This document shows, in pieces, positions 39,548 to 56,966 of a DNA stretch of 64,000 nucleotides. Within the stretch, counting starts at the first letter, position 1. Each line of letters opens with the position of its first letter. Under the pieces are notes generated by a model. The model did no database searches. It was not told the origin of the DNA and worked only from the letters and a program-made list of their open reading frames with translations. A program made the position numbers and the translations under genes. The DNA is from a virus: positions 24,996-88,995 of the IMG/VR virus record IMGVR_UViG_3300017706_000970; one strand, 5' to 3'.

Positions 39548-40229
39548 TACTATGAAATTATCAAGAGAAACATTGGAAATACTAAAGAACTATTCGACGA
39601 TCAATTGTAATATTAAGATCGATGCTGGTTCTACAATCAAAACTCTTTCGCCAATGAAGAACATCATGTCGAAGACGAGTATCGAAGAGACGTTTGAGAC
39701 TCAGGTTTCAATCTGGGATCTCAACAAGTTTCTAGGAACGGTTTCTCTTTACGAGAAGCCAGTGTTTGAGTTTCAGGATGATCATGTGATCATCTCGGAA
39801 GAGAATGGAAAGTCAAAGACTAAGTATCGGTACGCCGAGTCATCACTGATCTCAAGTGTGGACAAGGATGTACAGATGCCAGAACCAGTAGTTTCCTTTG
39901 TTCTATACAACAAGGATCTTTCTCAGGTTCTCAAGGCCGCTTCGGTCCTTGGACTTCCTGATCTTGCCGTTCGTTCATCCGATGACGGGTCGGAGATCGA
40001 ACTCGTTGCTCTGGATCTTAAGGATTCTAGTTGCAATACTTACAGTGTTACACTGGGTGACAATCCCGGTGGTCAATTCACCTTCAATTACAAAACCGAA
40101 AACATGAAGATGATTGCCGGCGATTACGATGTTGATATCACAGATAAGTTTGTAAGTCAGTTGACAAACAAAAATATTGATGTAACATACTGGATCGCAT
40201 TAGATAACACTTCTAAGTATGAGGGTTGA
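39528..40229 (+). CDS. 45: sliding clamp gp45
   Basis: 233 residues (T4 gp45 is 228). The N-terminal core M-K-L-S-R-E-T-L-E-I-L-K-N-Y matches T4 gp45, followed by S-P-M-K-N-I, I-W-D-L-N-K-F-L-G near 77 and late F-N-Y-K-T-E-N-M-K-M. It clamps DNA polymerase to DNA and, in T4, activates late transcription with gp55/gp33. ATG 39528 is preferred: GGAG at 39518-39521 is six bases away. The ATG at 39552 fits the family N-terminus but lacks a ribosome site. It overlaps the zinc protein by 20 bases. Confidence 0.92.
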   Translation: MTAVKVDTMKLSRETLEILKNYSTINCNIKIDAGSTIKTLSPMKNIMSKTSIEETFETQVSIWDLNKFLGTVSLYEKPVFEFQDDHVIISEENGKSKTKYRYAESSLISSVDKDVQMPEPVVSFVLYNKDLSQVLKAASVLGLPDLAVRSSDDGSEIELVALDLKDSSCNTYSVTLGDNPGGQFTFNYKTENMKMIAGDYDVDITDKFVSQLTNKNIDVTYWIALDNTSKYEG

Positions 40230-40231
40230 AC

Positions 40232-41170
40232 GTGAAGCAAGAACATTTGTGGGTCGAGAAGTATCGTCCCAGAACAATTGAAGAGTGTATTCTTCCTGTC
40301 TCTATCAAGAGTACATTTCAGGACATTGTAAATTCAGGAGAGATGCAGAACCTACTTCTCTCCGGCAAGGCTGGGTGCGGTAAGACTACCGTTGCCCGTG
40401 CCTTGTGTAATGAACTTGGTTGTGAGAACATTCTAATCAACTGTTCGGAAGATGGAAACATCGACACACTCCGAACCAAGATTCGAAATTTCGCAAGTAC
40501 AGTTTCATTCAGTGACCAGAAGAAGGTGGTGATTCTGGACGAGTTTGATTATTCAAATGCCCAGTCTACCCAACCGGCACTTCGTGGTTTCATCGAAGAG
40601 TTTTCCAAGAACTGTAGGTTTGTTTTGACTTGTAATTACAAGAACAGAATCATTGAACCTATTCATTCACGATGTACCAACATCGAATTTAAGATTGAGT
40701 CATCAGACAAACCAAAACTTGGTAAGCAGTTCTTCGACAGGTGTAGTAACATCCTAAAGGACGAAGAAGTTCCGTTCAAAGAAAAGGCCCTTGGTGAACT
40801 GGTCATCAAACACTTCCCAGACTTCCGTAGAATTCTAAACGAACTCCAACGGTATTCTGTTTCGGGTCAAATCGACGAGGGTATTCTAACCCAGATCGGT
40901 GAAGTGAACATCAAGAATCTGATGGAGTCTATGAAGAGTAAGGACTTCACCAATGTCAGGAAGTGGGTCGTCGAGAATCTAGACAATGACCCAGTGCAAA
41001 TCTTTCGTAAGTTATATGATTCTCTCTATGATAATCTTACATCGCACAGTATTCCACAAGCAATTCTTGTGATCGCCGAGTATCAGTACAAGGCTGCATT
41101 CGTTGCCGACGCGGAGATCAATCTAACGGCATGTCTTATTGAAATTATGATGGAGTGTGAATTTAAATGA
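40232..41170 (+). CDS. 44: clamp loader large subunit gp44
   Basis: 312 residues (T4 gp44 is 319). AAA+ layout: W-V-E-K-Y-R-P-R-T-I-E-E-C-I-L-P at the N-terminus, Walker A S-G-K-A-G-C-G-K-T (~44-52), Walker B V-V-I-L-D-E-F-D (~99-106), and H-S-R-C near 147 as arginine finger. With gp62 it loads gp45. GTG 40232 is preferred over TTG 40226 because GAGGG (40221-40225) is six bases before it. It begins just after the gp45 stop and overlaps the next gene. Confidence 0.95.
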   Translation: MKQEHLWVEKYRPRTIEECILPVSIKSTFQDIVNSGEMQNLLLSGKAGCGKTTVARALCNELGCENILINCSEDGNIDTLRTKIRNFASTVSFSDQKKVVILDEFDYSNAQSTQPALRGFIEEFSKNCRFVLTCNYKNRIIEPIHSRCTNIEFKIESSDKPKLGKQFFDRCSNILKDEEVPFKEKALGELVIKHFPDFRRILNELQRYSVSGQIDEGILTQIGEVNIKNLMESMKSKDFTNVRKWVVENLDNDPVQIFRKLYDSLYDNLTSHSIPQAILVIAEYQYKAAFVADAEINLTACLIEIMMECEFK

Positions 41171-41388
41171 TCAATGGTATGAAAACTAATACTAAGTCAA
41201 CACTCTCTTCAAACTCTAAACTTTGTACACAGATTATTCATTTTTCTAGTGGAGAGAAGAGAACATTCACGGACATATTGACCGAAAATATTAAGCAAGG
41301 TCAGTTCACGAAACTAGAAAGAAAAGATGGAAGTATGATAATGATTAACGATAAAAATGTTATTTGTATTGAGGTATTTTTCCAATGA
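41167..41388 (+). CDS. small conserved protein after gp44
   Basis: 73 residues. The centre and C-terminus (S-G-E-K-R-T-F, I-K-Q-G-Q-F-T-K-L-E, N-D-K-N-V-I-C-I-E-V-F) form a small beta-type fold seen next to clamp-loader genes in other marine T4-like phages. Function unknown. It overlaps gp44 by ATGA and the next gene similarly, so all are co-translated. A second ATG at 41179 is a possible start. Confidence 0.55.
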   Translation: MINGMKTNTKSTLSSNSKLCTQIIHFSSGEKRTFTDILTENIKQGQFTKLERKDGSMIMINDKNVICIEVFFQ

Positions 41389-41678
41389 AGTTTTATCCAA
41401 CAAGAGGCAAAGTTGCCATCAAGATGGAAGGTTCAAAACAAGCTGATGGACCTATAATTTATGAAGAGAAAAATACTGGTCTTTATGGTACAGGATTTGT
41501 TGCCAGTGTAGGAAATCCTGTTATACTAGAGAGTGGTGAGGAAGTAATTCCAGAATTTCATGAGGGACAACGTGTCGCTTATGAGAATCGAAAAGATCAC
41601 CAATTCTTTGGAGATTTTGTTATGATGGATCAGAGATGTGTCGTTGCAATCTTGGATGGAGAAACCAAGATTGGCTGA
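41385..41678 (+). CDS. GroES-like co-chaperonin
   Basis: 97 residues, the usual GroES length. The strands match: N-terminal Y-P-T-R-G-K-V-A-I-K-M, a mobile-loop-like stretch ending in I-I-Y-E-E-K near residue 30, T-G-F-V-A-S-V-G-N-P, then E-G-Q-R-V-A-Y-E-N and the closing D-Q-R-C-V-V-A-I-L-D. T4 uses gp31 to replace GroES when folding gp23; this may serve the same end with host GroEL. A GroES gene between 44 and 62 is unlike the T4 gene 31 position. Confidence 0.7.
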   Translation: MKFYPTRGKVAIKMEGSKQADGPIIYEEKNTGLYGTGFVASVGNPVILESGEEVIPEFHEGQRVAYENRKDHQFFGDFVMMDQRCVVAILDGETKIG

Positions 41679-42789
41679 ACTGATTCTCAATCAAAGTGAC
41701 ACAGATTATGCTATGTCGAGAGTTCGTGATTACTACGAAAACTTTGATCGCATTGATGGTTACTTTCGGGATCGAAAGAAGGAGAGACTGGAGGGGGTCA
41801 CTCCTTCTCTCTTTCCCGTTGAGAATGAGTTCTTCAATGACTTTACGATGAACCCGATGGATATGAATTTTGCCGTAACAGAAACTTCGAAAGAAGTTTA
41901 CGACAATCTTTTCTGTCAGGTTTCATCGTTCCCCGCAGACGACAACCCCGGCAAGAATGTTCGGTTTTTGATCAAGGAGACAAACACCAACACGATTGCC
42001 GGGTTTGTCCGTCTCGGTTCTCCCACGATTAACAGTGCGCCTCGTAACAAGATGCTGGGCAACACTCCAGATCTTACCGCGTTGAATCGTCACTTTATCA
42101 TGGGGTTTCATATTGTTCCTGCTCAACCCTTCGGTTTCAATTACCTCGGTGGTAAATTACTTACAATGATTTGTTGTTCGCATTTTACACGACGGTATCT
42201 AAACAAGAAGTATGGAGTAGAAATTTGTGCCTTTGAGACTACCTCGTTGTATGGTAATATCAAGGGGTGTAGTCAGTATGATGGAATGAAACCTTACCTA
42301 CGAAACGTAGGACTTACCGATAGCAAGTTTCTGCTCACTATGGCTGACAAGTGGTATGCTGAATTGAACGAGTGGTTCATCAATCGCAATGGTGGAGAAC
42401 ATTTGATTAAGAAAGATGCGTCTAGTCGTAAACTAAAGACACAGACCAAGATGATTGCAATCATCAAGGCCAGTCTTCGTTCACAGGGACGTACAACGGA
42501 TCTGGCGGACTTCAACGACTTCATCAAGAAGGCAATCGACCTCAACACACAGAAACTACAATACTTCTCTAACTATGGTTTTGAGAATGTGGTTGACTAT
42601 GTAAATGGTAAAACCGATGCACTGATTAAGAAACCAAACTACGACAACTATGAACTAGAAAATGCAATCAATTGGTGGAAGAAGAAAGCTCAGAAACGAT
42701 TTGACAATCTAAATGCAGATGGTAGAATACGACATGAGATGGAAGTCTGGAAGTCAGACAACCTAGAAGGAATTGATATTATCCGATGA
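41656..42789 (+). CDS. DUF4338/DruA-like protein between clamp-loader genes
   Basis: 377 residues from ATG 41656 (an in-frame GTG at 41638 is also possible; neither has a good ribosome site). The core N-R-H-F-I-M-G-F-H-I-V-P, L-G-G-K-L-L-T, then K-K-Y-G-V-E-I-C-A-F-E-T-T-S-L-Y-G-N-I-K-G-C-S resembles the DUF4338 domain of Druantia DruA, which has N-x-R-F-L-I-L-P, Y-G, and an E-T-F-V-x-x-x-x-F-x-G-T-C motif in the same order. The C-terminal ~150 residues are helical and Lys-rich. The match is remote. It overlaps the GroES-like gene by 23 bases and gp62 by 4. Confidence 0.45.
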   Translation: MEKPRLAELILNQSDTDYAMSRVRDYYENFDRIDGYFRDRKKERLEGVTPSLFPVENEFFNDFTMNPMDMNFAVTETSKEVYDNLFCQVSSFPADDNPGKNVRFLIKETNTNTIAGFVRLGSPTINSAPRNKMLGNTPDLTALNRHFIMGFHIVPAQPFGFNYLGGKLLTMICCSHFTRRYLNKKYGVEICAFETTSLYGNIKGCSQYDGMKPYLRNVGLTDSKFLLTMADKWYAELNEWFINRNGGEHLIKKDASSRKLKTQTKMIAIIKASLRSQGRTTDLADFNDFIKKAIDLNTQKLQYFSNYGFENVVDYVNGKTDALIKKPNYDNYELENAINWWKKKAQKRFDNLNADGRIRHEMEVWKSDNLEGIDIIR

Positions 42790-43163
42790 AGATGAACCTA
42801 TCCGAAGTTCTAAATGCAATCAACTATGACAAAACGCCTCTTCTCGAAGATGATCTTCAGGAGAAGGCATACGTCCCGTTTGTGATCAACCGATCACTTT
42901 CTTACTTTCCTGATACGATTTTGTATGCAAATCAGGTAAACCACTACAATCAATTGGACAAGAAGATGCAGTTTGACTATCTTCGATTGTCTCTTCGTCC
43001 AAGAAAACGATTCAGTAAGTGGATTAAGTCACAAGAAGAAGATGATTTGCAGTTGATCAAGGACCATTATAACTATTCTAACGAGAGAGCTACTGAAGTG
43101 CTTAGGGTACTTACCCCAAATCAGATTCAAGATATCCGTTCCCTGTACGAATACGGGGGTTGA
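42786..43163 (+). CDS. 62: clamp loader small subunit gp62
   Basis: 125 residues (T4 gp62 is 187). It keeps the segment F-V-I-N-R-S-L-S-Y-F-P-D-T near residue 32, Q-F-D-Y-L-R-L-S-L-R-P-R-K-R-F-S-K-W near 62 and a helical C-terminus. It is the fifth subunit of the gp44/62 loader. Shorter than T4, as in other marine relatives. Overlaps the upstream gene by four bases and precedes regA, as in T4. Confidence 0.85.
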   Translation: MKMNLSEVLNAINYDKTPLLEDDLQEKAYVPFVINRSLSYFPDTILYANQVNHYNQLDKKMQFDYLRLSLRPRKRFSKWIKSQEEDDLQLIKDHYNYSNERATEVLRVLTPNQIQDIRSLYEYGG

Positions 43164-43649: not shown

Positions 43650-44297
43650 ATGAGCATTCCAAAAATTATCCACCAAATATGGGTGGGTGATCAGTCCAAA
43701 CGTCCTGTCGAAATGATGGAGACTTGGAAAGAAAAGAACCCAACATGGGACTATCGGTTTTGGTCTGAAGAGAACATGCCGAAACTAAGAAATCAAGCAC
43801 AGTTTGATGCTATGAATGAACTCGCCGGTAAGGCAGACATACTTCGGTATGAACTGCTTTATAACTACGGTGGGTTTTTTATTGATGCTGATTCTATCTG
43901 TGTAAATCCACTTGATGATTTCTTCTTAGAGAATGAAGCATTCTGTTGTTGGGAAAACGAAGAGGTTCGTGAAGGATTGATGTGTAATGGATATCTTGCA
44001 TGTTCACAAAACAACAAGTTGTTGGATGACATGGTTTGGAGGATTCGTGAAATGAATCCAGAAGAACTTTCTAAGTTACCAAATCTTACCGCATGGAAAA
44101 CTGTCGGACCTGTGTTCCTCACAGAGATGACTAAGAAAACTGGTTACGATAAGATCAAAATTTATCCTTCACATTACTTCTTGCCAAAACATTATACTGG
44201 TGTAGAATATAAGGGTAATGATAAGATCTATTCTGAACAGTATTGGGGTAGCACCGAAACAATGAAAGGTAAAATGGGAATGACATATGGACAATAA
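43650..44297 (+). CDS. glycosyltransferase, GT32/OCH1-like (DXD)
   Basis: 215 residues. Begins I-P-K-I-I-H-Q-I-W-V-G, the standard start of Gly_transf_sug proteins, then A-D-I-L-R-Y-E-L-L-Y-N-Y-G-G near 62-75 and the nucleotide-metal motif D-A-D at ~79-81. Members move a hexose from a nucleotide sugar to a glycan or protein. Acceptor unknown. First gene of the sugar island, 24 bases after regA with AAGG before its ATG. Confidence 0.85.
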   Translation: MSIPKIIHQIWVGDQSKRPVEMMETWKEKNPTWDYRFWSEENMPKLRNQAQFDAMNELAGKADILRYELLYNYGGFFIDADSICVNPLDDFFLENEAFCCWENEEVREGLMCNGYLACSQNNKLLDDMVWRIREMNPEELSKLPNLTAWKTVGPVFLTEMTKKTGYDKIKIYPSHYFLPKHYTGVEYKGNDKIYSEQYWGSTETMKGKMGMTYGQ

Positions 44298-44994
44298 AAA
44301 TAATGAAAAAAATTGGTACTCAATAGTAACTAATGAATGTCTTAGTTATCCTATTCCAGTTGATGTTAAAATTTGTTTAGATGTTGGATGTAATGTCGGT
44401 GGATTTGTAAATGCTTGGAAAGATCACATTGAAAAATTTTATTGTGTAGATGCCGGGTCCAGTAATGTGTCAGAAATAAAACATAATACAAAAGACTTTG
44501 AAAACGAAATAACAATAATTCATAAAGCTGTTCATAGCAATTCCAATGAAAAGTTGTCGTTAAGACCCTATCTAGTAGACAACCAAAAACCAATAAATAG
44601 TGGTTCTTATGGAACAACAGAATTTGTTTATGATAATAACAATCATGGATGGAGAACTGATACATCCGCAGATTTTGAAGTAGTCGATACTATAAGTTTA
44701 GAAGACTTACTTACAGATGCTAAGAAACAAATGAATGTAAGTGAAATTGATTTGATGAAAGTTGATATTGAGGGTGCAGAATATGATTTTCTGATGAATA
44801 AAGATTTAAGTTCTGTCAAGTATATCGTTATGGAATTTCATAACTTCTTAAGTAAAATGGAATCTGAGATCGATGGAAAGAATCGTTCTGAGGCTTTACA
44901 TGATCACATATCAAAGACACATATAATGAAAATAAGTAATGGTGATGGGATCCATACTCATTTTAACAGACTTTATGAGAGAAGAGAAAAATGA
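44287..44994 (+). CDS. FkbM-family methyltransferase
   Basis: 235 residues. SAM-binding L-D-V-G-C-N-V-G-G-F near 31-40 and the FkbM hallmark D-I-E-G-A-E-Y-D-F-L near 159-168, followed by M-E-F-H-N-F. FkbM proteins O-methylate sugars or macrolides. In this setting methylation of a glycan made by the neighbouring transferases is likely. Overlaps the preceding gene by 11 bases and the next by 4. Codons are A/T-rich compared with the head genes. Confidence 0.85.
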   Translation: MDNKNNEKNWYSIVTNECLSYPIPVDVKICLDVGCNVGGFVNAWKDHIEKFYCVDAGSSNVSEIKHNTKDFENEITIIHKAVHSNSNEKLSLRPYLVDNQKPINSGSYGTTEFVYDNNNHGWRTDTSADFEVVDTISLEDLLTDAKKQMNVSEIDLMKVDIEGAEYDFLMNKDLSSVKYIVMEFHNFLSKMESEIDGKNRSEALHDHISKTHIMKISNGDGIHTHFNRLYERREK

Positions 44995-45746
44995 GTGTTG
45001 ATGTATTTTTAAATTGTTATAGAAGAACACGTTGGTTACCTGAACAGATAGAAGCCGTAAACAATCAGAGTGTTGATGTTTCTGGGATCTATGCTTGGCG
45101 AAACAATAGTGAACAAGAAGTTCCAGACGAAATAAAGAAACAACTGATCTTTGCAGATTGCAATTACAATCTTGGAGTCTGGTCTAGATTTGCTTACGCT
45201 CTTAACTCGAAGGCTGATTATATTTGCGTTCTAGATGACGACACCATTCCCGGTGAAAACTGGTTGCAAAATTGTCTGGATACTATGGAGAAGACTCCCG
45301 GTCTCCTTGGAACTGTCGGTGTTCTGTTTGGTGACAAACATTACTCGTGGCAAAAACTTAGACGGGTTGGATGGTGTGATCCAAACGAAGAAACTGCAAA
45401 GGTAGATATTGTTGGTCACTCTTGGTTCTTCCCAAGAGAACTTCTAAGTGTTCTGTGGAGAGAACTGCCTCATGTTGATATTCCGCCAATTGTTGGTGAA
45501 GATATTCATTTCTCTCATATGATTCAGAAGTATACGGACTTTGCAACATATGTCCCTCCTCATCCAAAGGATGATCTTTCTATGTGGGGTAGTACCAAAG
45601 GTTCTGAATATGGTCACAGTGAAGAAGGAATCTCAATGACTACGTTTCAGGGTCCAAATGGAAAACCATTTAGAGCGGGGCAACTAATGGGTATTTGTCT
45701 AGCTAGGGCCGTCGATGATGGTTTCAAGATCTTGGAAGCAGAATGA
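44991..45746 (+). CDS. glycosyltransferase, GT-A fold (GT2-like)
   Basis: 251 residues. N-terminal beta strand V-D-V-F-L-N-C-Y-R-R-T, donor-binding Y-N-L-G-V-W-S-R-F near 59-67 and the metal site L-D-D-D-T at ~81-85. Later W-F-F-P-R-E and E-D-I-H-F-S, the likely catalytic acid region. Fits short GT2-like enzymes of phages and capsule clusters. Donor and acceptor unknown. Overlaps both neighbours by four bases. Confidence 0.8.
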   Translation: MSVDVFLNCYRRTRWLPEQIEAVNNQSVDVSGIYAWRNNSEQEVPDEIKKQLIFADCNYNLGVWSRFAYALNSKADYICVLDDDTIPGENWLQNCLDTMEKTPGLLGTVGVLFGDKHYSWQKLRRVGWCDPNEETAKVDIVGHSWFFPRELLSVLWRELPHVDIPPIVGEDIHFSHMIQKYTDFATYVPPHPKDDLSMWGSTKGSEYGHSEEGISMTTFQGPNGKPFRAGQLMGICLARAVDDGFKILEAE

Positions 45747-46519
45747 AAGATTTCAAACAAGAATTTTATAAGTATCTAACAAAAATACAACTACATGAAC
45801 CTTTCGCATTTAGTAGATGGGCGGATGGTGAACTTTGGATTCTTGAGAATAAATCTTACTCTCTGAGTCCTACTTCTCATGGTTATTTAAATCCAGAAGA
45901 TCAGAAAGAGTTCAATTCTGAAACACATAAATTTCATCATGATAAATTGTGGGATGCTTTTAGATATAAGTCTAAAACCTATCACATTGGCATAACTACA
46001 AATTCTGATGCGGGAATAGTTGGGTATAGTCCACGGGACTGGATGATTGATAATAGTGCTTCTGATATTGAAAATATAACTTTTGCCAATTTGTTTATCA
46101 ACTCTAACTATTATAATTTTCGTGAAAAGGTTTTACCTACATTTGACGAGTATGAAATCGTTATTATGTGTAATGAAAATTCTAAGTTAGATAAATTCAA
46201 GAATGTCATAAAAGATTTTAGAGTTGGATCAAACTGTATCATAAACGATGATGATAAGATAGAAGAGATAGTTCAATATACCCGAGAGACTAAACCAGAA
46301 GGTAAATTGTTTTTGTTTTGTGCAAGTAGTCTTGGAAATATTTGCATTCATAAACTGCATGAAATTGCACCAAACAACACATATCTTGATTTGGGTTCTG
46401 CCCTAAATCCCGATCTTGAATTGGGAATTGATAGGGGATATTTGTCTGCTTGGGCTGGAGTCAAGCAAAGAGGCATGTGGGACATGTCCAGTTATCTTGT
46501 GAGAAATGAGGCATGGTGA
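45743..46519 (+). CDS. probable glycosyltransferase, GT-D fold
   Basis: 258 residues. The motif F-S-R-W-A-D-G-E-L at ~23-31 matches the R-x-G-D-G-E motif of GT-D (DUF1792-type) enzymes, with Ala in place of the first Gly. A later L-F-L-F-C-A-S-S-L-G-N-I-C-I and Y-L-D-L-G-S-A match the second half of that fold. GT-D enzymes add glucose to glycosylated serine-rich proteins in streptococci, so a protein acceptor is possible. Inferred from the motif only. Confidence 0.6.
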   Translation: MKDFKQEFYKYLTKIQLHEPFAFSRWADGELWILENKSYSLSPTSHGYLNPEDQKEFNSETHKFHHDKLWDAFRYKSKTYHIGITTNSDAGIVGYSPRDWMIDNSASDIENITFANLFINSNYYNFREKVLPTFDEYEIVIMCNENSKLDKFKNVIKDFRVGSNCIINDDDKIEEIVQYTRETKPEGKLFLFCASSLGNICIHKLHEIAPNNTYLDLGSALNPDLELGIDRGYLSAWAGVKQRGMWDMSSYLVRNEAW

Positions 46520-46902
46520 TGATAAAAATAGTTAACAATGATCCTAAGTATTATGATTTCATACGATTACTTCGTAGTGATCCGAGAGTCCAAGATGGAT
46601 TCATAGAAGTCGTGAACATAACCAAAGATCAACAGGATAAATACATGCGTAAGCATCGTTCCAAATACATTGTCGCCTTGTACAATGATGAACCTGCTGG
46701 GTTTGCAGGGTCTTTGGATAATGATATTCGCGTGTGTGTACATCCTAATTATCAGGGTAAAGGTGTAGGAAAAGTTCTAATAACAGAACTGATGGAAAGA
46801 TTCCCAGATTCTTTTGCTAAAGTGAAAATTGAAAACGAAGCAAGTAGAAAACTATTCGAAAGTTGCGGATTTCAAATTAAGTATTGGTTAATGGAAAGAT
46901 GA
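46519..46902 (+). CDS. GNAT-family N-acetyltransferase
   Basis: 127 residues from ATG 46519, with GAGG seven bases upstream (an in-frame ATG lies at 46513). Acetyl-CoA binding motif V-H-P-N-Y-Q-G-K-G-V-G-K-V-L near residues 75-88, and N-E-A-S-R-K-L-F-E-S-C-G-F near 103-115, the usual motif B. In a sugar cluster a likely substrate is an amino sugar made with the DegT-like protein that follows, but this is inferred. Confidence 0.8.
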   Translation: MIKIVNNDPKYYDFIRLLRSDPRVQDGFIEVVNITKDQQDKYMRKHRSKYIVALYNDEPAGFAGSLDNDIRVCVHPNYQGKGVGKVLITELMERFPDSFAKVKIENEASRKLFESCGFQIKYWLMER

Positions 46903-47501
46903 AACATAACCCTTTTAAAATTGTAGAGATGTTTGAGGAGACAGTTGCTGATTACACAGGTGCGCCGTATGCCGTTGCGGTTACATCATGCACCGATGCT
47001 CTGTTTCTTTGTTGTAAGTATTTTGATGTTGATGAGGTTGAGATACCCGCAAAGACTTATCTCTCAGTACCTCAGTCTATCATTCATTCGGGTGGTGATG
47101 TAAAGTTTACCGATGATGAGTGGGAGGGTATCTACCAACTCAAACCATATCCAATTTACGATTCTGCTAAACGATTTACTTCTAACATGTATATTGAAGG
47201 TACAAACATGTGTCTGTCTTTTCATATCAAGAAGCACCTTGCAATTGGTAAGGGTGGTATGGTTCTAACCGACAACAAAGATATTGTTGAATGGCTTCGT
47301 GTTGCACGATACGAAGGCCGACACGCAGTACCATATAAGGAAGACGATATCACAATGCTTGGTTGGAACATGTATATGACTCCGCAACAGGCGTCACATG
47401 GTCTTGCACTGATGCAGAACTACCCAGAGAACGTACCAGATCTTATTGAAGAAGGAGGATACCGAGACTTGCGAGAGTTTACGGTATTTAAAAACAAATG
47501 A
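46899..47501 (+). CDS. short DegT/DnrJ-type aminotransferase-like protein
   Basis: 200 residues from ATG 46899, about half the usual length (~370). N-terminal F-E-E-T-V-A-D-Y-T-G-A-P-Y-A-V-A-V-T-S-C-T-D-A-L-F is the DegT block; Y-D-S-A-K-R-F replaces the usual E-D-A-A; and S-F-H-I-K-K at ~107-112 with G-K-G-G keeps the PLP lysine. The C-terminal small domain is missing, though the frame ends cleanly. Similar short forms occur in marine phage and metagenomic clusters, so it is probably a real subfamily and not a broken gene. Activity uncertain. Confidence 0.7.
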   Translation: MKHNPFKIVEMFEETVADYTGAPYAVAVTSCTDALFLCCKYFDVDEVEIPAKTYLSVPQSIIHSGGDVKFTDDEWEGIYQLKPYPIYDSAKRFTSNMYIEGTNMCLSFHIKKHLAIGKGGMVLTDNKDIVEWLRVARYEGRHAVPYKEDDITMLGWNMYMTPQQASHGLALMQNYPENVPDLIEEGGYRDLREFTVFKNK

Positions 47502-48358
47502 TAACCTTCAGTAAACTAGGTAGTGCAGGTAGATTGGGAAATCAACTTTTCCAATACGCTGCTTTGTTTAGTCTCGCTAAACATAGAGGCTATGATTACG
47601 GTATACCCAATCTCGAAAACATCGAGTGGCATGGTCAAAAGTGTCTGCTTCGTGAGTTTGATCTCACTGCACAGATTGTTGATACTCGACCGAGCAAAGT
47701 TTACATGGAGCCTGATTCGTGGAACTACGATCCTAATTTTTTTAGACTACAGGACAACATTGATCTGTACGGATATTTTCAAAGCACCTTTTACTTCGGG
47801 GATCTTGTAAAGGAGATCAGAGAAGAATTGACTCCAAGTGAAAAGCATCTGAGTAGGAGTAAAGAGTGGAGAAAGACTTTAGGTGAAAGACCTGTTGTTA
47901 GTGTCCATTTGAGAAGAGGGGACAACTGCGACTGGACAGATAACGAAGGGGCAAAACAAACTGCGTATGGTTGCTCCGAAGAGTTAGATCCCAACAGTTT
48001 CATGGGTAAGTATCTCAAAAATGCCTTTGATGTTTTTTCAGATCTTGAGGATCCTCTGTTTGTCATCTTCACAGGAGGGTCTAGAAGTGGAGATGATACA
48101 TTGGATATAGAATGGTGTAAAGGGCAGTTTACAGGAGATGAGTTTTTTGTAGCAAGTTCAAACGATGAACTTAGTGATTTCTGCAACATCATGTCGTGCG
48201 ATCACAATATCATTTCTCCTATCAGTTCATTTGGGTGGTGGGCAGCATTCATAAATAAAAATGAGAGCAAACAAGTTGTTGCTCCAGAAAACTACCATCC
48301 CGGTAGTGATGTGAAAAACAGACCGATGTTTTACCCCGAGGAGTTTACTTTAGTATGA
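47498..48358 (+). CDS. fucosyltransferase, GT11 (alpha-1,2)
   Basis: 286 residues. N-terminal G-R-L-G-N-Q-L-F-Q-Y-A-A at 11-22 and the GDP-fucose binding H-L-R-R-G-D at 137-142 are the two defining motifs of GT11. Later S-S-F-G-W-W-A-A-F completes the family pattern. It would transfer fucose to a galactose or similar acceptor. GDP-fucose synthase is encoded two genes downstream. Overlaps both neighbours by four bases. Confidence 0.88.
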   Translation: MITFSKLGSAGRLGNQLFQYAALFSLAKHRGYDYGIPNLENIEWHGQKCLLREFDLTAQIVDTRPSKVYMEPDSWNYDPNFFRLQDNIDLYGYFQSTFYFGDLVKEIREELTPSEKHLSRSKEWRKTLGERPVVSVHLRRGDNCDWTDNEGAKQTAYGCSEELDPNSFMGKYLKNAFDVFSDLEDPLFVIFTGGSRSGDDTLDIEWCKGQFTGDEFFVASSNDELSDFCNIMSCDHNIISPISSFGWWAAFINKNESKQVVAPENYHPGSDVKNRPMFYPEEFTLV

Positions 48359-49281
48359 CAGTTGTATGTAGGATCGATAATCACGGAGATGAATATCCCG
48401 ATGTTATAAACTCATTTTATGATCTAAAAAGGTTTGATAATGGGGTTCGAGATGTTGCTATTATTCAAGGTTACAAACTAAGCAGGGACGAAAATTTTCA
48501 TAGAACGATTGATGATATTCCACATCGTGCGTATTTGAACCTCGAAGCGCCGACTGCTTTTGCAAGCACGGATAACTCTATCGCTGAACAGCAAAGATTT
48601 ACACACGTTTATACTTTGTGTCCATACTCTTGTGACTATGCAAATCAAACCGGAGATACCAAGTTTATCCCAATACCATTTCCATATAGAGAGGATTGTT
48701 TTTCACCACACGACTACAGTGTGAAAGACCTAGACGCGATTTATATGGGCACGGCTATAAATCAAGAACATATTGATATAATTGAATTGATGAAACGATA
48801 CTCTTATAACTTTTGTTCATTAGGTCACTTGGGTAGCCCCACTATGTGTGGAGTATCGTCACGCGAAAAGTGGTCGGTTCTCGCAAGAACCAAAGTATCA
48901 GTTGCGATAAATATGTGTCCGATTCATGAAATGCACAAAGACTGGATCAAAAGAAATCCAAACTGGGACAAAATTGAGGCATTCAATAATCTTGATTACG
49001 GTTATTTCCCACAGTTCAAACCGAGAGTCATAGAGGCTGCTCGAATGAAAACACTAAATCTCGTAAAGCGAGATCCGTGGAACGTAATGGAATACTGGTT
49101 TGAACCCGATAAGCATTTTGTATATTGGGATACCGTTGAGGATCTACGGGAAAAAATGAACGATGCGATTGTAAACTTTGATAAGTATCAGCACATTGTC
49201 GATGCTGCATATCAAAGAGTACAAGACTTTGAAATAGATAAAATCATGGATGCTATGATAAAAGGAGATATTGTATCATGA
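48355..49281 (+). CDS. glycosyltransferase, GT-B (CgeB/YkvP-like)
   Basis: 308 residues. The C-terminal half has P-R-V-I-E-A-A-R-M-K-T near 228-238, then D-T-V-E-D-L-R-E-K-M and Q-H-I-V-D-A-A-Y-Q-R-V, the pattern of the CgeB/YkvP C-terminal glycosyltransferase domain. The N-terminal half is not conserved. Usually adds sugars to a surface structure. Donor unknown. In the middle of the fucose genes, with overlaps on both sides. Confidence 0.7.
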   Translation: MTVVCRIDNHGDEYPDVINSFYDLKRFDNGVRDVAIIQGYKLSRDENFHRTIDDIPHRAYLNLEAPTAFASTDNSIAEQQRFTHVYTLCPYSCDYANQTGDTKFIPIPFPYREDCFSPHDYSVKDLDAIYMGTAINQEHIDIIELMKRYSYNFCSLGHLGSPTMCGVSSREKWSVLARTKVSVAINMCPIHEMHKDWIKRNPNWDKIEAFNNLDYGYFPQFKPRVIEAARMKTLNLVKRDPWNVMEYWFEPDKHFVYWDTVEDLREKMNDAIVNFDKYQHIVDAAYQRVQDFEIDKIMDAMIKGDIVS

Positions 49282-50219
49282 GTCTTGAAGGAAAAACTGT
49301 GCTGGTCACAGGTGCAAGTGGTTTCGTTGGAACAAATCTGGTGAACAAAGTACAGTCTACTGATTGTACTTTGCTGACACCATCAAGCAGCGAACTTGAC
49401 CTAACAAATGAAGAAAGTGTAAGTGAATATTTCTCCTCCACGGTTCCAGAAGTGGTTCTACACATCGCAGGAAAAGTCGGCGGTATTCTTGCAAACAAGA
49501 CATACCCCGGAGAGTTCTTTCACAAAAATGCAATGATGAGCGTTCTAGTTGGTCACTACGCTTGGTTGAACGGAGCAGAAAAAGTAGTGTCTCTTGCCGC
49601 TGGTTGTGGATATCCTAAGCACCTAGAAGTCCCTTATCGAGAAGATCAGTTCTGGGACGGGTTTCCCGACGAAAACTCATATGGATACTCTCTTGCAAAG
49701 AAGAATCTGATCGTGCAGTCGTGGTCATACCGAGAGCAATATGGTTTTGACTCCACGGTTCTTCTCCCTGCAAATCTTTACGGTCCACATGATAACTTTG
49801 ATCTAGAGTCCTCTCATGTTGTCCCTGCACTTATTCGTAAGTTCATCGAAGCAAGAGATGAGGGTAGTGATGAAGTTGTTGTTTGGGGAGATGGATCTGC
49901 GAGTCGAGAGTTTTTGTTTGTGGATGACACCGTTGAGGCTATTCTCAAGATGGTAGACTGTAACGAATCAGGTCCGTTCAATCTAGGAACGGGAGTTGAA
50001 ACAAGTATCAAAGAACTCATTGAAACGATTCGGTCATGTGTTGGATATGAGGGGAGTATCGTTTGGGACACTAGCAAACCAAATGGTCAACCAAGAAGAT
50101 TCTATGATATGTCTGAGTTTGAACGTGCGGTTGGATATATCCCATCGACCCCTCTTTCAGATGGTATCTCTAAAACAGTGAAGTGGTATGAGGAGAATCG
50201 AAGTGTTGCAAGAATCTGA
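49278..50219 (+). CDS. fcl: GDP-L-fucose synthase
   Basis: 313 residues, family-normal length. NADP-binding T-G-A-S-G-F-V-G at ~11-18, K-V-G-G-I at 66-70, G-C-G-Y-P-K with the conserved Cys110, catalytic Y-x-x-x-K (Y137, K141), and N-L-Y-G-P-H-D-N-F-D and D-T-S-K-P-N-G-Q-P-R-R late. It converts GDP-4-keto-6-deoxymannose to GDP-L-fucose. The preceding step (GDP-mannose dehydratase, gmd) is not in the window, so the host or another phage gene must supply it. Confidence 0.92.
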   Translation: MSLEGKTVLVTGASGFVGTNLVNKVQSTDCTLLTPSSSELDLTNEESVSEYFSSTVPEVVLHIAGKVGGILANKTYPGEFFHKNAMMSVLVGHYAWLNGAEKVVSLAAGCGYPKHLEVPYREDQFWDGFPDENSYGYSLAKKNLIVQSWSYREQYGFDSTVLLPANLYGPHDNFDLESSHVVPALIRKFIEARDEGSDEVVVWGDGSASREFLFVDDTVEAILKMVDCNESGPFNLGTGVETSIKELIETIRSCVGYEGSIVWDTSKPNGQPRRFYDMSEFERAVGYIPSTPLSDGISKTVKWYEENRSVARI

Positions 50220-51237
50220 TAAAAAGAAAATGGTTATAACAGGTGGGTGTGGTTTCATCGGATCAAACATGTCACACCACTTTGCAAAGTCGGGTGAGTG
50301 GGATGTCTTTGTCTTTGATGATATGTCACGGGGAAGAAAAGAGAACATCAAGGATGATTCGATTACAATTATTGAGGGGTCTGGAGAGAGACTAGATGAC
50401 TGCCTATTTGCCTTTGAGGGAGCAGACACGGTTATTCATCTCGCAGCAAAAGTAGGAGGAATTGGTTACTACGAAGAAAAACCATTCTCTGTCTGTCTTG
50501 AAAATACCCTTATTGATACAAACGTAATTTTAGGTATGATAATGGCTGGTGTGAATAAATTTGTCTACGCAAGCACCACGCATGTATATCCCCACGAACT
50601 ACAAACAAGCCCAGATTCGCCGCCCCTGAAAGAAAGTGATGCAGGCTCCGATCCTCTTTTGTCTTATGGGTTGGAGAAACTTTACATCGAAAAACTACTC
50701 TCTTTCATGGACGTAGAGAGGGACGATGAAATTGATCATGATATTCCTAATTTGGGTATTGCTCGTTACTGTGGAATATATGGATCGGGTCAAGATACCA
50801 ATCTTGAAAATACATCTCTACTTCCTGCTCTCTGTAAAAGAGCATCGTTGTATCCAGAGGTTCCTTATCAAATTAGGGGCGACGGAAGAGAAACAAGATC
50901 ATATTGCTACATTGATGATGCGATTGAGGCTACTGAGATGATGCTAAATAAAATGGAGACAGAGAGAATAGTCGGACCATATAACGTGGGGTCTGATGAA
51001 AAGTTTACGGTGATGCAAATCGCAGAGAAGATTGCAAATATTTCAGGGAAAGATATGGCGATACAAACCCAACCTGAGATTGTTGCAAATATCATGGGAC
51101 AATCCTGTGACCTAGAAACTATAAAGTCAGAACTCGGCTGGTATCCAAAAACTACCCTTGACAAAGGACTGATCAAGATATACAATGATGTAAAGGAGCG
51201 AGTAAATCATGAGAAAGTATCTACCAACGCTGAGTGA
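50203..51237 (+). CDS. GDP-mannose 3,5-epimerase-like SDR
   Basis: 344 residues from GTG 50203, chosen because AGGAG (50191-50195) lies seven bases before it; ATG 50188 and 50230 are alternatives. G-G-C-G-F-I-G-S at ~14-21, A-A-K-V-G-G-I-G-Y-Y, Y-A-S-T-T-H-V-Y-P, L-K-E-S-D-A, catalytic Y-G-L-E-K and G-D-G-R-E-T-R-S-Y follow the GDP-mannose 3,5-epimerase plan. Exact substrate is uncertain: other extended SDRs share parts. Overlaps fcl by 17 bases. Confidence 0.72.
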   Translation: MLQESDKKKMVITGGCGFIGSNMSHHFAKSGEWDVFVFDDMSRGRKENIKDDSITIIEGSGERLDDCLFAFEGADTVIHLAAKVGGIGYYEEKPFSVCLENTLIDTNVILGMIMAGVNKFVYASTTHVYPHELQTSPDSPPLKESDAGSDPLLSYGLEKLYIEKLLSFMDVERDDEIDHDIPNLGIARYCGIYGSGQDTNLENTSLLPALCKRASLYPEVPYQIRGDGRETRSYCYIDDAIEATEMMLNKMETERIVGPYNVGSDEKFTVMQIAEKIANISGKDMAIQTQPEIVANIMGQSCDLETIKSELGWYPKTTLDKGLIKIYNDVKERVNHEKVSTNAE

Positions 51238-51604
51238 ACTGATCGACAGACTCAGCATCAATCAACTCAAAGAAGTTTTTATTGCGGACCACAAAGATGA
51301 ATATGCAGATGAGATCAAACTTATTCTACATGACATTGATGAGATTCTAAAGGACGAAGACATCACCCTTGATGCGGATTCGATCCGATCGATTATTGTT
51401 CTTGCACAGATGAATCTTCATATCTGGCACAATGAGTCCGCTGCCCGTCAGGGTAAAGAGGGAGCAGACTTGTTCCTTACCCACGGTCTAAATGGAATCA
51501 GAAACACCGCAAAAAATAAGATCCAAGAAAAGGCAGGAGGTCGAAAGGACTATAAGATTGATTGTCTTGGTAGCGACTTCAAGGACTGGGATGTAAGTTG
51601 GTGA
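51209..51604 (+). CDS. unidentified helical protein in sugar island
   Basis: 131 residues, helical, with M-R-K-Y-L-P-T-L-S-E-L-I-D-R-L-S-I-N-Q-L-K-E-V-F at the N-terminus and H-N-E-S-A-A-R-Q near 74. I have no function for it. The start has AAGGAG about 12 bases upstream and the gene overlaps its neighbours (29 and 7 bases). Its place between sugar enzymes suggests a role in the same pathway or its control. Confidence 0.6.
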   Translation: MRKYLPTLSELIDRLSINQLKEVFIADHKDEYADEIKLILHDIDEILKDEDITLDADSIRSIIVLAQMNLHIWHNESAARQGKEGADLFLTHGLNGIRNTAKNKIQEKAGGRKDYKIDCLGSDFKDWDVSW

Positions 51605-52341
51605 TACTCGTCATCGGCGATTCTTGCACAGACGTATATCATTATGGATATACAAAGAGACTCGCACCCGAGGGTCCGGTTCCTGTTTTTCATATAAGCA
51701 AAACAGTGAAAAATGGAGGGATGGCAAAAAACGTATGTGAAAATATACATTCTCTTGGTGCAGAGTGTGAAATGGTGACAAATACTTGCGATGTGACAAA
51801 AACAAGATACGTTGACGATAGACATAATCACCTTCTTTTGCGTGTTGACTCTCACGAAAGAAAAGTTGAAAGAGTGCAAGATCTGTGGAGCATTGATTTT
51901 TCCAAGTATGAGTCTATCGTAATATCTGATTATGATCACGGATTTTTGACAGAGAGCGATATAGAATTTATTGCGTCAGAGTGTTCAGGCACTACTTTTC
52001 TCGACACAAAAAAGAAACTAGGCTCTTGGTGTAAGCAAGTTGACTATATCAAGATAAATGAATTTGAGTTTGAAAATACTAAACACACTATAGATCCCGA
52101 TATCAAAGATAAACTAATCGTGACTCTTAGCAAAGATGGTTGCTCTTTCAGAGGTAAGACCTATGGGGTAAAAGAAGTAGAGGTCAAAGACATGACCGGA
52201 GCAGGCGATACTTTTCTAGCATCTTTAGTCGTTTCCATGCACGAAGGAAAAACTATTGAAAAATCAATTGAAGTTGCAAACAAAAACGCTACAATCATTG
52301 TGCAACAAAAAGGTGTGGCTAAGATCGGAGATCACATATGA
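51598..52341 (+). CDS. heptose-7-phosphate kinase-like (HldE domain I, PfkB family)
   Basis: 247 residues. N-terminal G-D-S-C-T-D-V-Y-x-Y-G-x-T-x-R-L-A-P-E-G-P-V-P-V (~7-30) is the HldE kinase start, followed by K-N-G-G-M-A-K-N-V near 38-46 and the anion-hole D-M-T-G-A-G-D-T-F at ~198-206 with the catalytic Asp. HldE kinase phosphorylates heptose-7-phosphate at C1. It is shorter than the usual ~310 residues. Start TTG 51598 or GTG 51601. The matching nucleotidyltransferase domain is a separate gene at 52699. Confidence 0.8.
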   Translation: MVILVIGDSCTDVYHYGYTKRLAPEGPVPVFHISKTVKNGGMAKNVCENIHSLGAECEMVTNTCDVTKTRYVDDRHNHLLLRVDSHERKVERVQDLWSIDFSKYESIVISDYDHGFLTESDIEFIASECSGTTFLDTKKKLGSWCKQVDYIKINEFEFENTKHTIDPDIKDKLIVTLSKDGCSFRGKTYGVKEVEVKDMTGAGDTFLASLVVSMHEGKTIEKSIEVANKNATIIVQQKGVAKIGDHI

Positions 52342-52706
52342 GCAGCATTGAAAAACCAGAAATTGTACAAAAGGGGTGGGGTAGTGAAGTAATTTTTGCC
52401 AATAATGAAATGTATTGCGGTAAACTACTTAGATTCAACAAAGGGTCAAAATTTAGTATGCACTTTCACATGAAAAAAGATGAAACGTGGTATTTATCAG
52501 AAGGTACGATTAAACTTAATTGGATTGACACAACCGATGCTTCTAGAACAACTGAGATTGTAGAGTGTGGTGGTGTTATTCGAAATAGACCCGGAGAACC
52601 CCATCAGGTAGAAGCATTAACAGATGCAATAATTTTTGAAGTTTCCACCACCCACTTTGATGAAGATAGTTATAGAGTAGAATCGGGAGATAGTCAAATT
52701 GGTTGA
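52338..52706 (+). CDS. cupin, mannose-6-phosphate isomerase type II-like
   Basis: 122 residues. K-G-W-G-S-E near 12-17, cupin motif 1 S-M-H-F-H-M-K-K-D-E (~40-49) with metal-binding His, and motif 2 P-G-E-P-H-Q-V near 86-92. Single-domain cupins of this kind occur with nucleotide-sugar genes as isomerases or epimerases. It lies between the kinase and nucleotidyltransferase genes, overlapping each, so it probably acts on the same sugar. Specific reaction unknown. Confidence 0.75.
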   Translation: MSSIEKPEIVQKGWGSEVIFANNEMYCGKLLRFNKGSKFSMHFHMKKDETWYLSEGTIKLNWIDTTDASRTTEIVECGGVIRNRPGEPHQVEALTDAIIFEVSTTHFDEDSYRVESGDSQIG

Positions 52707-53106
52707 AACCTATTCTATAATTTGGATAAATGGATGTTTTGATATTTTACATCGCGGTCATATTGAGATGTTCAAATATGCAAGTAGTCTCGGCGGAAGA
52801 GTTGTAGTGGGATTGGATACAGACGAGAGAATTAAAGAATTAAAAGGTAATTCTCGTCCAATAAATACATTAGATGATAGGATGGAATTGGTTCGGTCAA
52901 TCAAATATGTGAATGGAGTAGTTTCGTTCGGAAGTGATGAGGAGTTAATCGCCTTACTAAAAGAAATATGTCCTGTGCATAGAGTGATAGGCGGCGACTA
53001 CAGAGAACTCCCAATTGTGGGGGAAGAGTATTCTGGAGAAATTCTTTTCTTCGATAGGATAGCAGACTACTCTACAACAGGAATACTTAATGTACAAAGA
53101 GACTAA
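52699..53106 (+). CDS. heptose-1-phosphate nucleotidyltransferase-like (HldE domain II)
   Basis: 135 residues. N-G-C-F-D-I-L-H-R-G-H (~11-21) holds the H-x-G-H nucleotidyltransferase motif, then V-V-V-G-L-D-T-D-E-R-I, L-K-G-N-S-R-P-I and late G-G-D-Y-R and Y-S-T-T-G-I-L matching the HldE C-domain more than TagD-type enzymes. Start TTG 52699 with GGGAG upstream. It activates the heptose phosphate (probably ADP-linked). The kinase is a separate gene 358 bases upstream. Cytidylyltransferase is the alternative. Confidence 0.78.
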   Translation: MVETYSIIWINGCFDILHRGHIEMFKYASSLGGRVVVGLDTDERIKELKGNSRPINTLDDRMELVRSIKYVNGVVSFGSDEELIALLKEICPVHRVIGGDYRELPIVGEEYSGEILFFDRIADYSTTGILNVQRD

Positions 53107-53299
53107 GTTACGAACAATTCTAAAAACTATATTATGGAGATTGTTTGCTACACTTAATAGTTTTATAATTTTGTATTTGGCTATGACCGACAAACATATA
53201 TGGAACGCAGTGTTTATGAATATTAGTGGTTTTTTTGTTTACTTTTTTTACGAAAGAATATGGAATAAAATTCCATATGGAAAGGTTTGTGATAAATGA
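53090..53299 (+). CDS. DUF2061 membrane protein
   Basis: 69 residues. K-E-T-K-L-R-T-I-L-K-T-I-L-W-R-L-F-A-T-L matches the start of DUF2061, followed by two hydrophobic segments (~20-32 and ~38-54) and Y-E-R-I-W-N-K-I-P-Y-G at the end. A small inner-membrane protein of unknown role, often near sugar or sulfate genes. Overlaps both neighbours. Confidence 0.75.
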   Translation: MYKETKLRTILKTILWRLFATLNSFIILYLAMTDKHIWNAVFMNISGFFVYFFYERIWNKIPYGKVCDK

Positions 53300-54252
53300 A
53301 TGATCGTGTTTTGATTACGGGTGGTGCTGGATATATTGGAACAACTCTTGTTCCAGTATTATTGGATATGGGATATAATGTTACAGTAGTTGATAATCTA
53401 ATGTATAGACAAACAACACTAACTACACATTGTTTCAATCCCAAGTTTAAATTTGTAAAAGGAGATGTTAGAGATTATGATTTAATTGATCCTCTCATTA
53501 AAGAACATGACATTATTATTCCTCTTGCTTGTATCGTAGGAATGCCTGCTTGTAAGAAGGACGAGAGAGCCGCGGTTCAAGTTAATGAAGACGCAGTGAA
53601 ACATATAGCGGATATTGTTGGTAATAATAAGAAAATTATTTTCCCAACTACTAATTCTGGTTATGGGATTGGGGAAATGAAAGATGGAGAACTTGTTCAC
53701 TGTAACGAAGAAACTCCACTCGCCCCTTTAAGTCTTTACGGTACAACTAAAGTAAATGCAGAGAACTATCTTAAGGAAACATCAGGTGCAGTTTGTCTTC
53801 GACTTGCAACGGTGTTTGGAATTTCCGAACGAATGAGACTCGACTTACTTGTAAATGACTTTACATACAAAGCGTGTACAGATAAATACATTGTTCTCTT
53901 CGAAAGTTCTTTCAAGAGAAACTTCATTCATGTCAAAGACGTAGTTGGTGCAATGATTTTTGCTATTGAACATTATGATAAAATGAAGGGCGAATCATTC
54001 AATGTAGGACTCAGTAGTGCCAATCTTTCAAAGATGGAATTATGTGAGACTATAAAAGAATACATTCCAAACTTCTCTATTCAAGAATCTGAGATTGACA
54101 ACGACCCAGACAAGAGGAATTATATAGTGAGTAATGATAAAATAGAATCTCTTGGATGGAAACCATCTGTTGATTTACATGTGGGTATAAAAGAACTAAT
54201 AGAAGCTTACGAAATTATTTCATATAATAATAGGTTATTCACAAATCAATGA
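53296..54252 (+). CDS. NAD-dependent epimerase/dehydratase (SDR)
   Basis: 318 residues. T-G-G-A-G-Y-I-G-T at ~8-16, P-L-A-C-I-V-G, catalytic Y-G-T-T-K near 148-152, R-L-A-T-V-F-G, R-N-F-I-H-V-K-D and late N-V-G-L-S are extended-SDR motifs. It acts on a nucleotide sugar, but which is not clear; similarity is general. Overlaps neighbours by four bases. Confidence 0.8.
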   Translation: MNDRVLITGGAGYIGTTLVPVLLDMGYNVTVVDNLMYRQTTLTTHCFNPKFKFVKGDVRDYDLIDPLIKEHDIIIPLACIVGMPACKKDERAAVQVNEDAVKHIADIVGNNKKIIFPTTNSGYGIGEMKDGELVHCNEETPLAPLSLYGTTKVNAENYLKETSGAVCLRLATVFGISERMRLDLLVNDFTYKACTDKYIVLFESSFKRNFIHVKDVVGAMIFAIEHYDKMKGESFNVGLSSANLSKMELCETIKEYIPNFSIQESEIDNDPDKRNYIVSNDKIESLGWKPSVDLHVGIKELIEAYEIISYNNRLFTNQ

Positions 54253-56516: not shown

Positions 56517-56966
56517 ATGCCCGCAGGCGAATACAATATAACAGTAGATCGTGGAAGTACGTTTAAGTTTCATGTGACATTCTTCAACTCATCTGAAGTT
56601 GCAGTGGATCTAAACACATATTCTGCTTCTATGCAGGTCAGAAAATCTTACACCACCGAGAATATCCTTCTCTCTGCAACTGGTAGTACCGGAGACAGTA
56701 ACAAGGGTGTTGTCGGTGGTGGTTCTACTGGTTACTTTACGGGAACTGGTGGTGTTGCAGGTATCGGTGGGATAGAGTTAAACTCTAGTACCGCTGGTGT
56801 GATAGGAACAACTGGTGGTATATTCCTGTCAGTTGATCATACCACCATGCAAAACATACCATCAGGTAGACATTTTTACGATCTAGAATTGACAAATCTT
56901 TCAGATAGTACCGTAACCAGAATACTTCAAGGTAGATTTGAAGTTGAACCCGAGGTAACTAGGTGA
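56517..56966 (+). CDS. beta-rich BppU-N-like virion protein
   Basis: 149 residues. The N-terminal pattern [19 protein letters not shown]-x-V-A-V-D-L, then [10 protein letters not shown], matches the build of the gene at 21807 and of other BppU-N-like fibre adaptors. It ends with F-E-V-E-P-E. Probably links or caps fibres of the second cluster. Overlaps the next gene (GTGA). Confidence 0.65.

What the first reader, a model, noticed from the sequence alone, without database searches (positions are those of the whole stretch)
41656..42789. DruA-like (DUF4338) protein inside the clamp-loader operon
A 377-residue protein with an apparent DUF4338 core sits between genes 44 and 62, where T4 has nothing. 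DruA is known from the Druantia defence system. A phage copy among replication genes could be a counter-defence decoy, a DNA-modifying factor or a replication helper.
Basis: inference. Interest (0 to 1): 0.6.

Follow-up and report, generated by a model that had tools for sequence, protein, structure and literature searches.

The report
DruA-like gene swaps with phage methylase
Many ocean viruses of bacteria carry, beside their DNA-copying genes, a relative of the bacterial defence protein DruA with an acyltransferase-type fold, and it sits almost exactly where their cousins keep a DNA-adenine methylase, which suggests that it chemically marks the virus's own DNA.

Summary
The 377-residue ORF at 41656-42789, between genes 44 and 62, is a real DruA-family protein: it passes Pfam PF14236's cut-off (E 1.7e-7), and profile-profile comparison with bacterial DruA gives E 1.1e-19 over 260 columns. 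A confident model (pLDDT 91.7) has a GNAT acyltransferase core. DruA-like proteins in Synechococcus phages were already published (Phold, PMC12774648), so the resemblance itself is not new.

What I add is a slot swap. In most T4-like cyanophages the place before gene 62 holds a D12-class N6-adenine DNA methylase (421 records). Among IMG/VR loci, 80 carry that methylase, 96 carry this protein and none carries both; between genes 44 and 62 it is methylase 49, DruA-like 30, both 0. Of 13 complete DruA-like phage genomes only one has any D12 methylase, at another place. The gene also recurs beside 43, uvsX, 41 and 46/47, is under purifying selection like 44 and 62, and keeps DruA's invariant motifs.

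Best reading: a GNAT-fold enzyme that modifies phage DNA in place of Dam, working like Mu Mom without belonging to the Mom family (inferred, about 50%). A Druantia decoy is unlikely. No substrate or modification has been shown.

The parts
41656..42789 (+). DruA-family (PF14236) protein, clade A of marine T4-like phages, 377 aa; GNAT-like core about residues 70-220, helical C-terminal part 230-377
42124..42159 (+). Residues 157-168, Q-P-x-G-x-N-x-x-G-G-K-L: loop after strand 4 at the place of the GNAT acyl-CoA pyrophosphate loop; P158 and GGKL invariant in phage and bacterial DruA
42238..42282 (+). Residues 195-209, TTSLYG..K..SQYD: end of strand 5 and following loop, putative active-site motif; Y208 invariant, TTS and S206 nearly so, also in bacterial DruA
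40226..41170 (+). gp44 clamp loader large subunit, upstream boundary of the slot
42786..43163 (+). gp62 clamp loader small subunit, downstream boundary; start overlaps the DruA-like stop as ATGA
41385..41678 (+). GroES/Cpn10-like 97-aa ORF just upstream, overlapping the first ATG by 23 nt; present only in the closest relatives
41167..41388 (+). 73-aa ORF of unknown function in the same slot

Best explanation
It is a GNAT-fold member of the DruA (DUF4338) family that most likely modifies the phage's own DNA, probably by transferring an acyl or similar group to a base, co-expressed with the replisome so that new DNA is marked as it is made. It takes the place, and by inference the job, of the Dam-type N6-adenine methylase that most T4-like cyanophages encode at the same spot. 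SHOWN: family membership, GNAT-like predicted fold, conserved motifs, place, purifying selection, near-exclusive alternation with Dam. INFERRED: that it is catalytically active, that DNA is the substrate, that adenine is the base, that the benefit is protection from host nucleases.
For: Family: PF14236 over cut-off; profile-profile with bacterial DruA E 1.1e-19 over 260 columns, C-terminal part included. Fold: pLDDT 91.7; the 50 listed PDB hits of the trimmed core are acetyltransferases or the AHL synthase LasI, best 6yug E 2.9e-4, prob 1.00; in the viral library a phage Mom ranks 6th, prob 1.00; DUF4338 independently called GNAT in PMC10853773. Motifs: G99, G116, R130, P158, GGKL 165-168, Y186, Y208, G219, R348 essentially invariant across 57 clade A, 12 clade B and 6 bacterial DruA proteins. 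Slot swap: S-RIM4 and P-TIM68 hold a D12 N6-adenine methylase directly before gp62; 421 phage records carry that methylase; in IMG/VR 80 Dam loci and 96 DruA-like loci, none with both; slot contents Dam 49, DruA-like 30, both 0, neither 14. Whole genomes: 12 of 13 DruA-like phages and 7 large IMG/VR contigs have no PF02086 anywhere, nor has this contig; 10 other Dam-bearing records have no DruA. With Dam in 87.5% of Synechococcus-phage records, at most 1 in 11 has p about 1e-8 if genomes were independent. Where the gene sits after gp43 instead, 44 and 62 adjoin with no Dam (L040, L043, L053, L057). Selection: pN/pS 0.03 to 0.29, close to gp44 and gp62.
Against: No substrate, cofactor or modification is shown; no DruA has a known activity in the papers found. 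No sequence-profile link to Mom (E 0.17), and Mom 8bv8 is not among the 50 best PDB hits. The canonical GNAT Q/R-x-x-G-x-G/A loop is altered. One phage, S-SCSM2R, has both genes, and one, DSL-LC03, has neither. Alternation could partly reflect phage lineage, since related genomes are not independent. Pelagibacter phages with the gene still avoid GATC strongly.
Confidence: 0.5

Rival explanations
1. GNAT enzyme that acylates a protein (replisome, host polymerase or host nuclease) or a small molecule rather than DNA; its alternation with Dam is then a matter of lineage.
For: Most solved GNAT relatives act on proteins, tRNA or small amines; the gene adjoins replisome genes in most loci.
Against: Does not predict near-exclusion with a DNA methylase in 12 of 13 genomes.
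Confidence: 0.2
2. Catalytically idle DNA-binding accessory of the replisome, using the GNAT scaffold to bind DNA or the clamp loader.
For: Location beside 44/62, 43, uvsX, 41 or 46/47 in most loci; altered acyl-CoA loop; extra helical C-terminal part.
Against: Motif residues at the presumed active site are nearly invariant across phage and bacterial DruA; the 44-62 interval is a general insertion spot.
Confidence: 0.13
3. Phage-borne defence or superinfection-exclusion factor acting alone, as DruA does within Druantia.
For: True homology to DruA; defence homologues in phages are common.
Against: No DruB-E partners were seen among the annotated neighbours in the phage records fetched; replication-gene setting in an apparently lytic phage; alternates with Dam.
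Confidence: 0.08
4. Decoy or inhibitor of host Druantia.
For: Phages do mimic defence parts; homologous to DruA.
Against: Slow evolution like gp44, very wide distribution (600+ stretches), DruA-family genes in only 3 of 197 Pelagibacteraceae genomes, one of them the phage type. Cyanobacterial hosts could not be screened.
Confidence: 0.05

Closest known systems
DruA (PF14236/DUF4338) of Druantia type I and related bacterial loci
   Same: Homologous over the core and C-terminal part: profile E 1.1e-19; R130, P158, GGKL, Y186, Y208, G219, R348 shared.
   Different: Shorter; stands alone in a phage replication operon; no DruB-DruE seen; about 20% identity; forms a separate viral clade.
DruA-like proteins of six Synechococcus phages reported with Phold (PMC12774648)
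   Same: Same protein family: S-PRM1, their example, is a 47% identical relative at the same place.
   Different: That report gives only structural similarity to DruA (TM 0.73); no context, GNAT assignment, Dam alternation or clade B in the passages read.
Mom of phage Mu (PF25680; PDB 8bv8)
   Same: GNAT-type fold; phage gene; a Mom model is among the nearer viral structures.
   Different: No sequence-profile match (E 0.17); different motifs; not a member of the Mom family.
Dam-type D12 N6-adenine methylase (PF02086) of T4-like cyanophages
   Same: Same slot before gp62, same strand, similar tight packing; the two alternate.
   Different: Unrelated protein family and, by family, a different chemistry; swap is by place, not homology.

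Membership tests
DruA / DUF4338 (PF14236) | Match to the curated profile over its cut-off | tested here: met
   31.2 bits vs 27, E 1.7e-7; relatives 34-80 bits
DruA / DUF4338 (PF14236) | Profile-profile similarity over the length to bacterial DruA | tested here: met
   99.2%, E 1.1e-19, 260 columns
DruA / DUF4338 (PF14236) | Conserved motif residues of the family | tested here: met
   G116, R130, P158, GGKL, Y186, Y208, G219, R348 shared by phage and bacterial sets
DruA / DUF4338 (PF14236) | Direct structural comparison of the model with a DruA model | not testable with these tools
   No pairwise structure tool; published for the S-PRM1 relative (TM 0.73, PMC12774648)
Druantia type I system | Operon DruA-DruB-DruC-DruD-DruE with a large helicase DruE | tested here: not met
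   Neighbours are 44, 62, 45, regA; no DruE-like gene among the window genes examined or the annotated neighbours in relatives
GNAT superfamily | GNAT fold (strand order and helices of the N-acyltransferase core) | tested here: met
   Predicted model; all 50 best listed PDB matches of the core are GNAT-fold, best E 2.9e-4; remote, TM about 0.4-0.5
GNAT superfamily | Q/R-x-x-G-x-G/A acyl-CoA loop | tested here: inconclusive
   Replaced by invariant N-x-x-G-G-K-L at the equivalent place
GNAT superfamily | Acyl-CoA binding or transfer | not testable with these tools
   Needs protein
Mom family (PF25680) | Sequence-profile match to Mom | tested here: not met
   No Mom hit in Pfam; hhalign 0.4%, E 0.17
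DNA-modifying enzyme | Modified base in phage DNA that depends on the gene | not testable with these tools
   Only indirect support from the Dam slot swap

The most novel reading that the evidence does not exclude
DruA-family proteins are a new class of DNA-base acyltransferases, and marine T4-like phages use them as a drop-in replacement for Dam methylation; this would also reveal the so far unknown chemistry of DruA in Druantia I.
Probability: 0.35. Interest if true: 0.85.

Novelty: new variant of a known kind. Interest (0 to 1): 0.6.

Why it matters
I found no described activity for DruA in the papers searched. An abundant, standalone phage version that alternates with a DNA methylase gives a concrete, testable prediction: virion DNA of cultured phages (S-SM2, S-SSM7, S-CAM9, HTVC008M) should carry an unreported base modification. 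If true it would add a DNA hypermodification carried by very common ocean viruses, explain a 'putative cytoplasmic protein' seen since 2010, and hint at how Druantia type I works.

Tried and rejected
(1) Membership of the Mom family, suggested by one record's 'methylcarbamoylase mom' label: no profile link in either direction and Mom 8bv8 not among the listed PDB hits, so kept only as a functional analogy. (2) Solved relatives by sequence: none for the phage family or bacterial DruA. (3) Remnants of Dam beside the DruA-like gene: none significant (best E 0.07). (4) S-T4 'methyltransferase' next to the gene: no Pfam match, sequence looks nuclease-like, so not a Dam remnant. (5) Restriction-site avoidance as a test of modification: Dam phages avoid GGCC (o/e 0.18-0.37), carriers less so (0.30-1.43; exact Mann-Whitney p 0.0013, picked after seeing 16 palindromes), but a phage with neither gene has 0.54, so lineage and host confound it. 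(6) NCBIfam has no model that fits. (7) genome-contig hits are all MAGs, probably mostly phage contigs, so give no evidence on host copies. (8) Host Druantia content could be tested only for Pelagibacteraceae, not for cyanobacteria. (9) Transcription timing: no held paper found for a carrier phage.

Full report
OBSERVATION. The ORF at 41656-42789 (+) is intact, 377 aa, and lies between gp44 and gp62, with gp45 and regA on either side. Two small ORFs (73 aa; 97 aa, GroES-like) also lie between gp44 and it. Its stop overlaps the gp62 start as ATGA. The true start may be ATG 41656 or TTG 41671. The contig is an IMG/VR virus record of 88,995 bases; its gp44 is below 60% identical to every phage record, so it is a T4-like phage with no close named relative.

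FAMILY. PF14236 (DruA) matches above the curated cut-off, as do the relatives. PHROG 19197, of unknown function, covers the whole protein (2.8e-141). Thirty-one phage records encode relatives (25 to 51% identity), nearly all marine or freshwater cyanophages plus Pelagibacter phages, annotated 'putative cytoplasmic protein' or hypothetical. In IMG/VR more than 600 stretches match. A second clade (B), prototype Mosig 'DUF4338 protein' (PF14236 1.8e-22), sits between gp46 and a peptidase gene (58 of 92 loci); HTVC008M has both clades, and one contig (L066) has them in tandem. In a tree of 85 proteins clade A and clade B are each well supported and separate from bacterial DruA, although several long branches make the deep joins unsure and the root is only a midpoint. 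Profile-profile comparison with six bacterial DruA proteins gives 99.2%, E 1.1e-19, and the residues G99, G116, R130, P158, GGKL(165-168), Y186, Y208, G219 and R348 are shared.

FOLD. AlphaFold2 on a 69-sequence alignment gives pLDDT 91.7. PDB hits of the full model are led by GNAT proteins with weak E-values. With the core alone (163 residues, pLDDT 80) the 50 listed hits are acetyltransferases or LasI, which shares the fold, best E 2.9e-4. In the viral library the best hits are uncharacterised giant-virus proteins (E 3.7e-17), and a phage Mom ranks sixth. PMC10853773 independently calls DUF4338 a GNAT domain. The acyl-CoA loop differs from the GNAT consensus but is strictly conserved within the family.

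CONTEXT. Of 109 clade A loci, about 95 show at least one known replication, recombination or neighbouring gene within the 6 kb fetched: 44/62, 43/uvsX, 41, 46/47. Since these genes are clustered in T4-like phages and the loci are related, this is not by itself proof of a replication role. Selection is strongly purifying: pN/pS 0.033, 0.120 and 0.292 against three relatives, next to 0.042, 0.105 and 0.194 for gp44.

SLOT SWAP. Looking at what non-carriers have between 44 and 62, S-RIM4 and P-TIM68 carry a D12-class N6-adenine DNA methylase directly before gp62. That methylase is found in 421 phage records, 329 named Synechococcus phage and 60 'Cyanophage', against 376 and 61 with gp44 and 25 and 1 with the DruA-like protein. 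In IMG/VR loci, 80 have Dam, 96 have the DruA-like gene, none has both; within measured 44-62 intervals the counts are Dam 49, DruA-like 30, neither 14, both 0. Loci were chosen for having one of the two, so the informative number is the zero overlap. In whole records, 12 of 13 carriers (S-SM2, S-CAM9, S-PRM1, S-SSM7, S-T4, S-SRM01 and others, of several genera) and 7 large contigs have no PF02086 match; the exception is the 244-kb S-SCSM2R, with one 85 kb away. This contig has none. Ten Dam-bearing records have no PF14236 match. DSL-LC03 has neither. With Dam in 87.5% of Synechococcus-phage records, one or fewer in 11 has p about 1e-8 under independence, which overstates the case because phages are related.

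MECHANISM. Step 1, GNAT-fold protein of the DruA family: shown by profile and predicted structure. Step 2, catalytically active: inferred from invariant motifs and purifying selection. Step 3, substrate is DNA: inferred from alternation with a DNA methylase and the replication-gene setting; Mom of Mu is the precedent for a GNAT-fold DNA modifier (PMC7824862). Step 4, the benefit is protection from nucleases or another use of Dam marking: inference only. I give this 0.5. Protein acylation, an idle replisome accessory, a standalone defence factor and a Druantia decoy follow.

WHAT IS KNOWN. The Phold paper (PMC12774648) reported DruA-like proteins in six Synechococcus phages by structure. I found no paper on their function, on their alternation with Dam, or on DruA's activity; subscription journals are mostly not held.

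Noticed in passing
window 43650-56455: About 13 kb of glycan and nucleotide-sugar genes (glycosyltransferases, nucleotide-sugar epimerases, UDP-GlcNAc 2-epimerase, PfkB kinase, heptose nucleotidyltransferase-like, aminotransferase-like) between regA and tail-fibre-like genes.
   Followed up: partly
window 41385-41678: GroES/Cpn10-like 97-aa ORF between 44 and the DruA-like gene, found only in the closest relatives and evolving much faster (pN/pS about 0.4) than its neighbours.
   Followed up: partly
BFVD A0A3G4ZXG3, A0A5K0UAJ3, A0A3G4ZRA1: Giant-virus proteins (Faunusvirus, Yasminevirus, Dasosvirus) are the best structural matches of the DruA-like model (E down to 3.7e-17).
   Followed up: no
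L066:1454-3994: Clade A and clade B DruA-like genes in tandem, 22 nt apart, on a 6-kb viral contig; HTVC008M carries both at separate places.
   Followed up: partly
L222:492-1301: Methylophilales phages Melnitz (same phage family) carry a protein related to Mu Mom (32% identity) and no DruA-like gene.
   Followed up: partly
L253-L332, L339-L418: Cyanophages with Dam avoid GGCC (o/e 0.18-0.37), DruA-like carriers much less (0.30-1.43); the HTVC008M, Mosig and Melnitz phages strongly avoid GATC (0.03-0.22).
   Followed up: partly
L336:2584-2982: S-T4 protein annotated 'methyltransferase' beside the DruA-like gene has no methylase match and looks like a PD-(D/E)xK-type nuclease (by eye).
   Followed up: partly
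L236 (CP070751.1, about 1.62-1.63 Mb): A 5.2-Mb 'Thermoplasmata archaeon bin33 chromosome' contains T4-like phage gp62, regA and a broken DruA-like gene, so the assembly is probably chimeric.
   Followed up: no
L244, L245: Two Pelagibacteraceae genomes carry 660-700-aa bacterial-type DruA proteins; whether a Druantia system surrounds them was not examined.
   Followed up: no
window 56963-63011: Large proteins with collagen-like repeats and a laminin-G-like lectin domain, probably receptor-binding or tail-fibre proteins.
   Followed up: no
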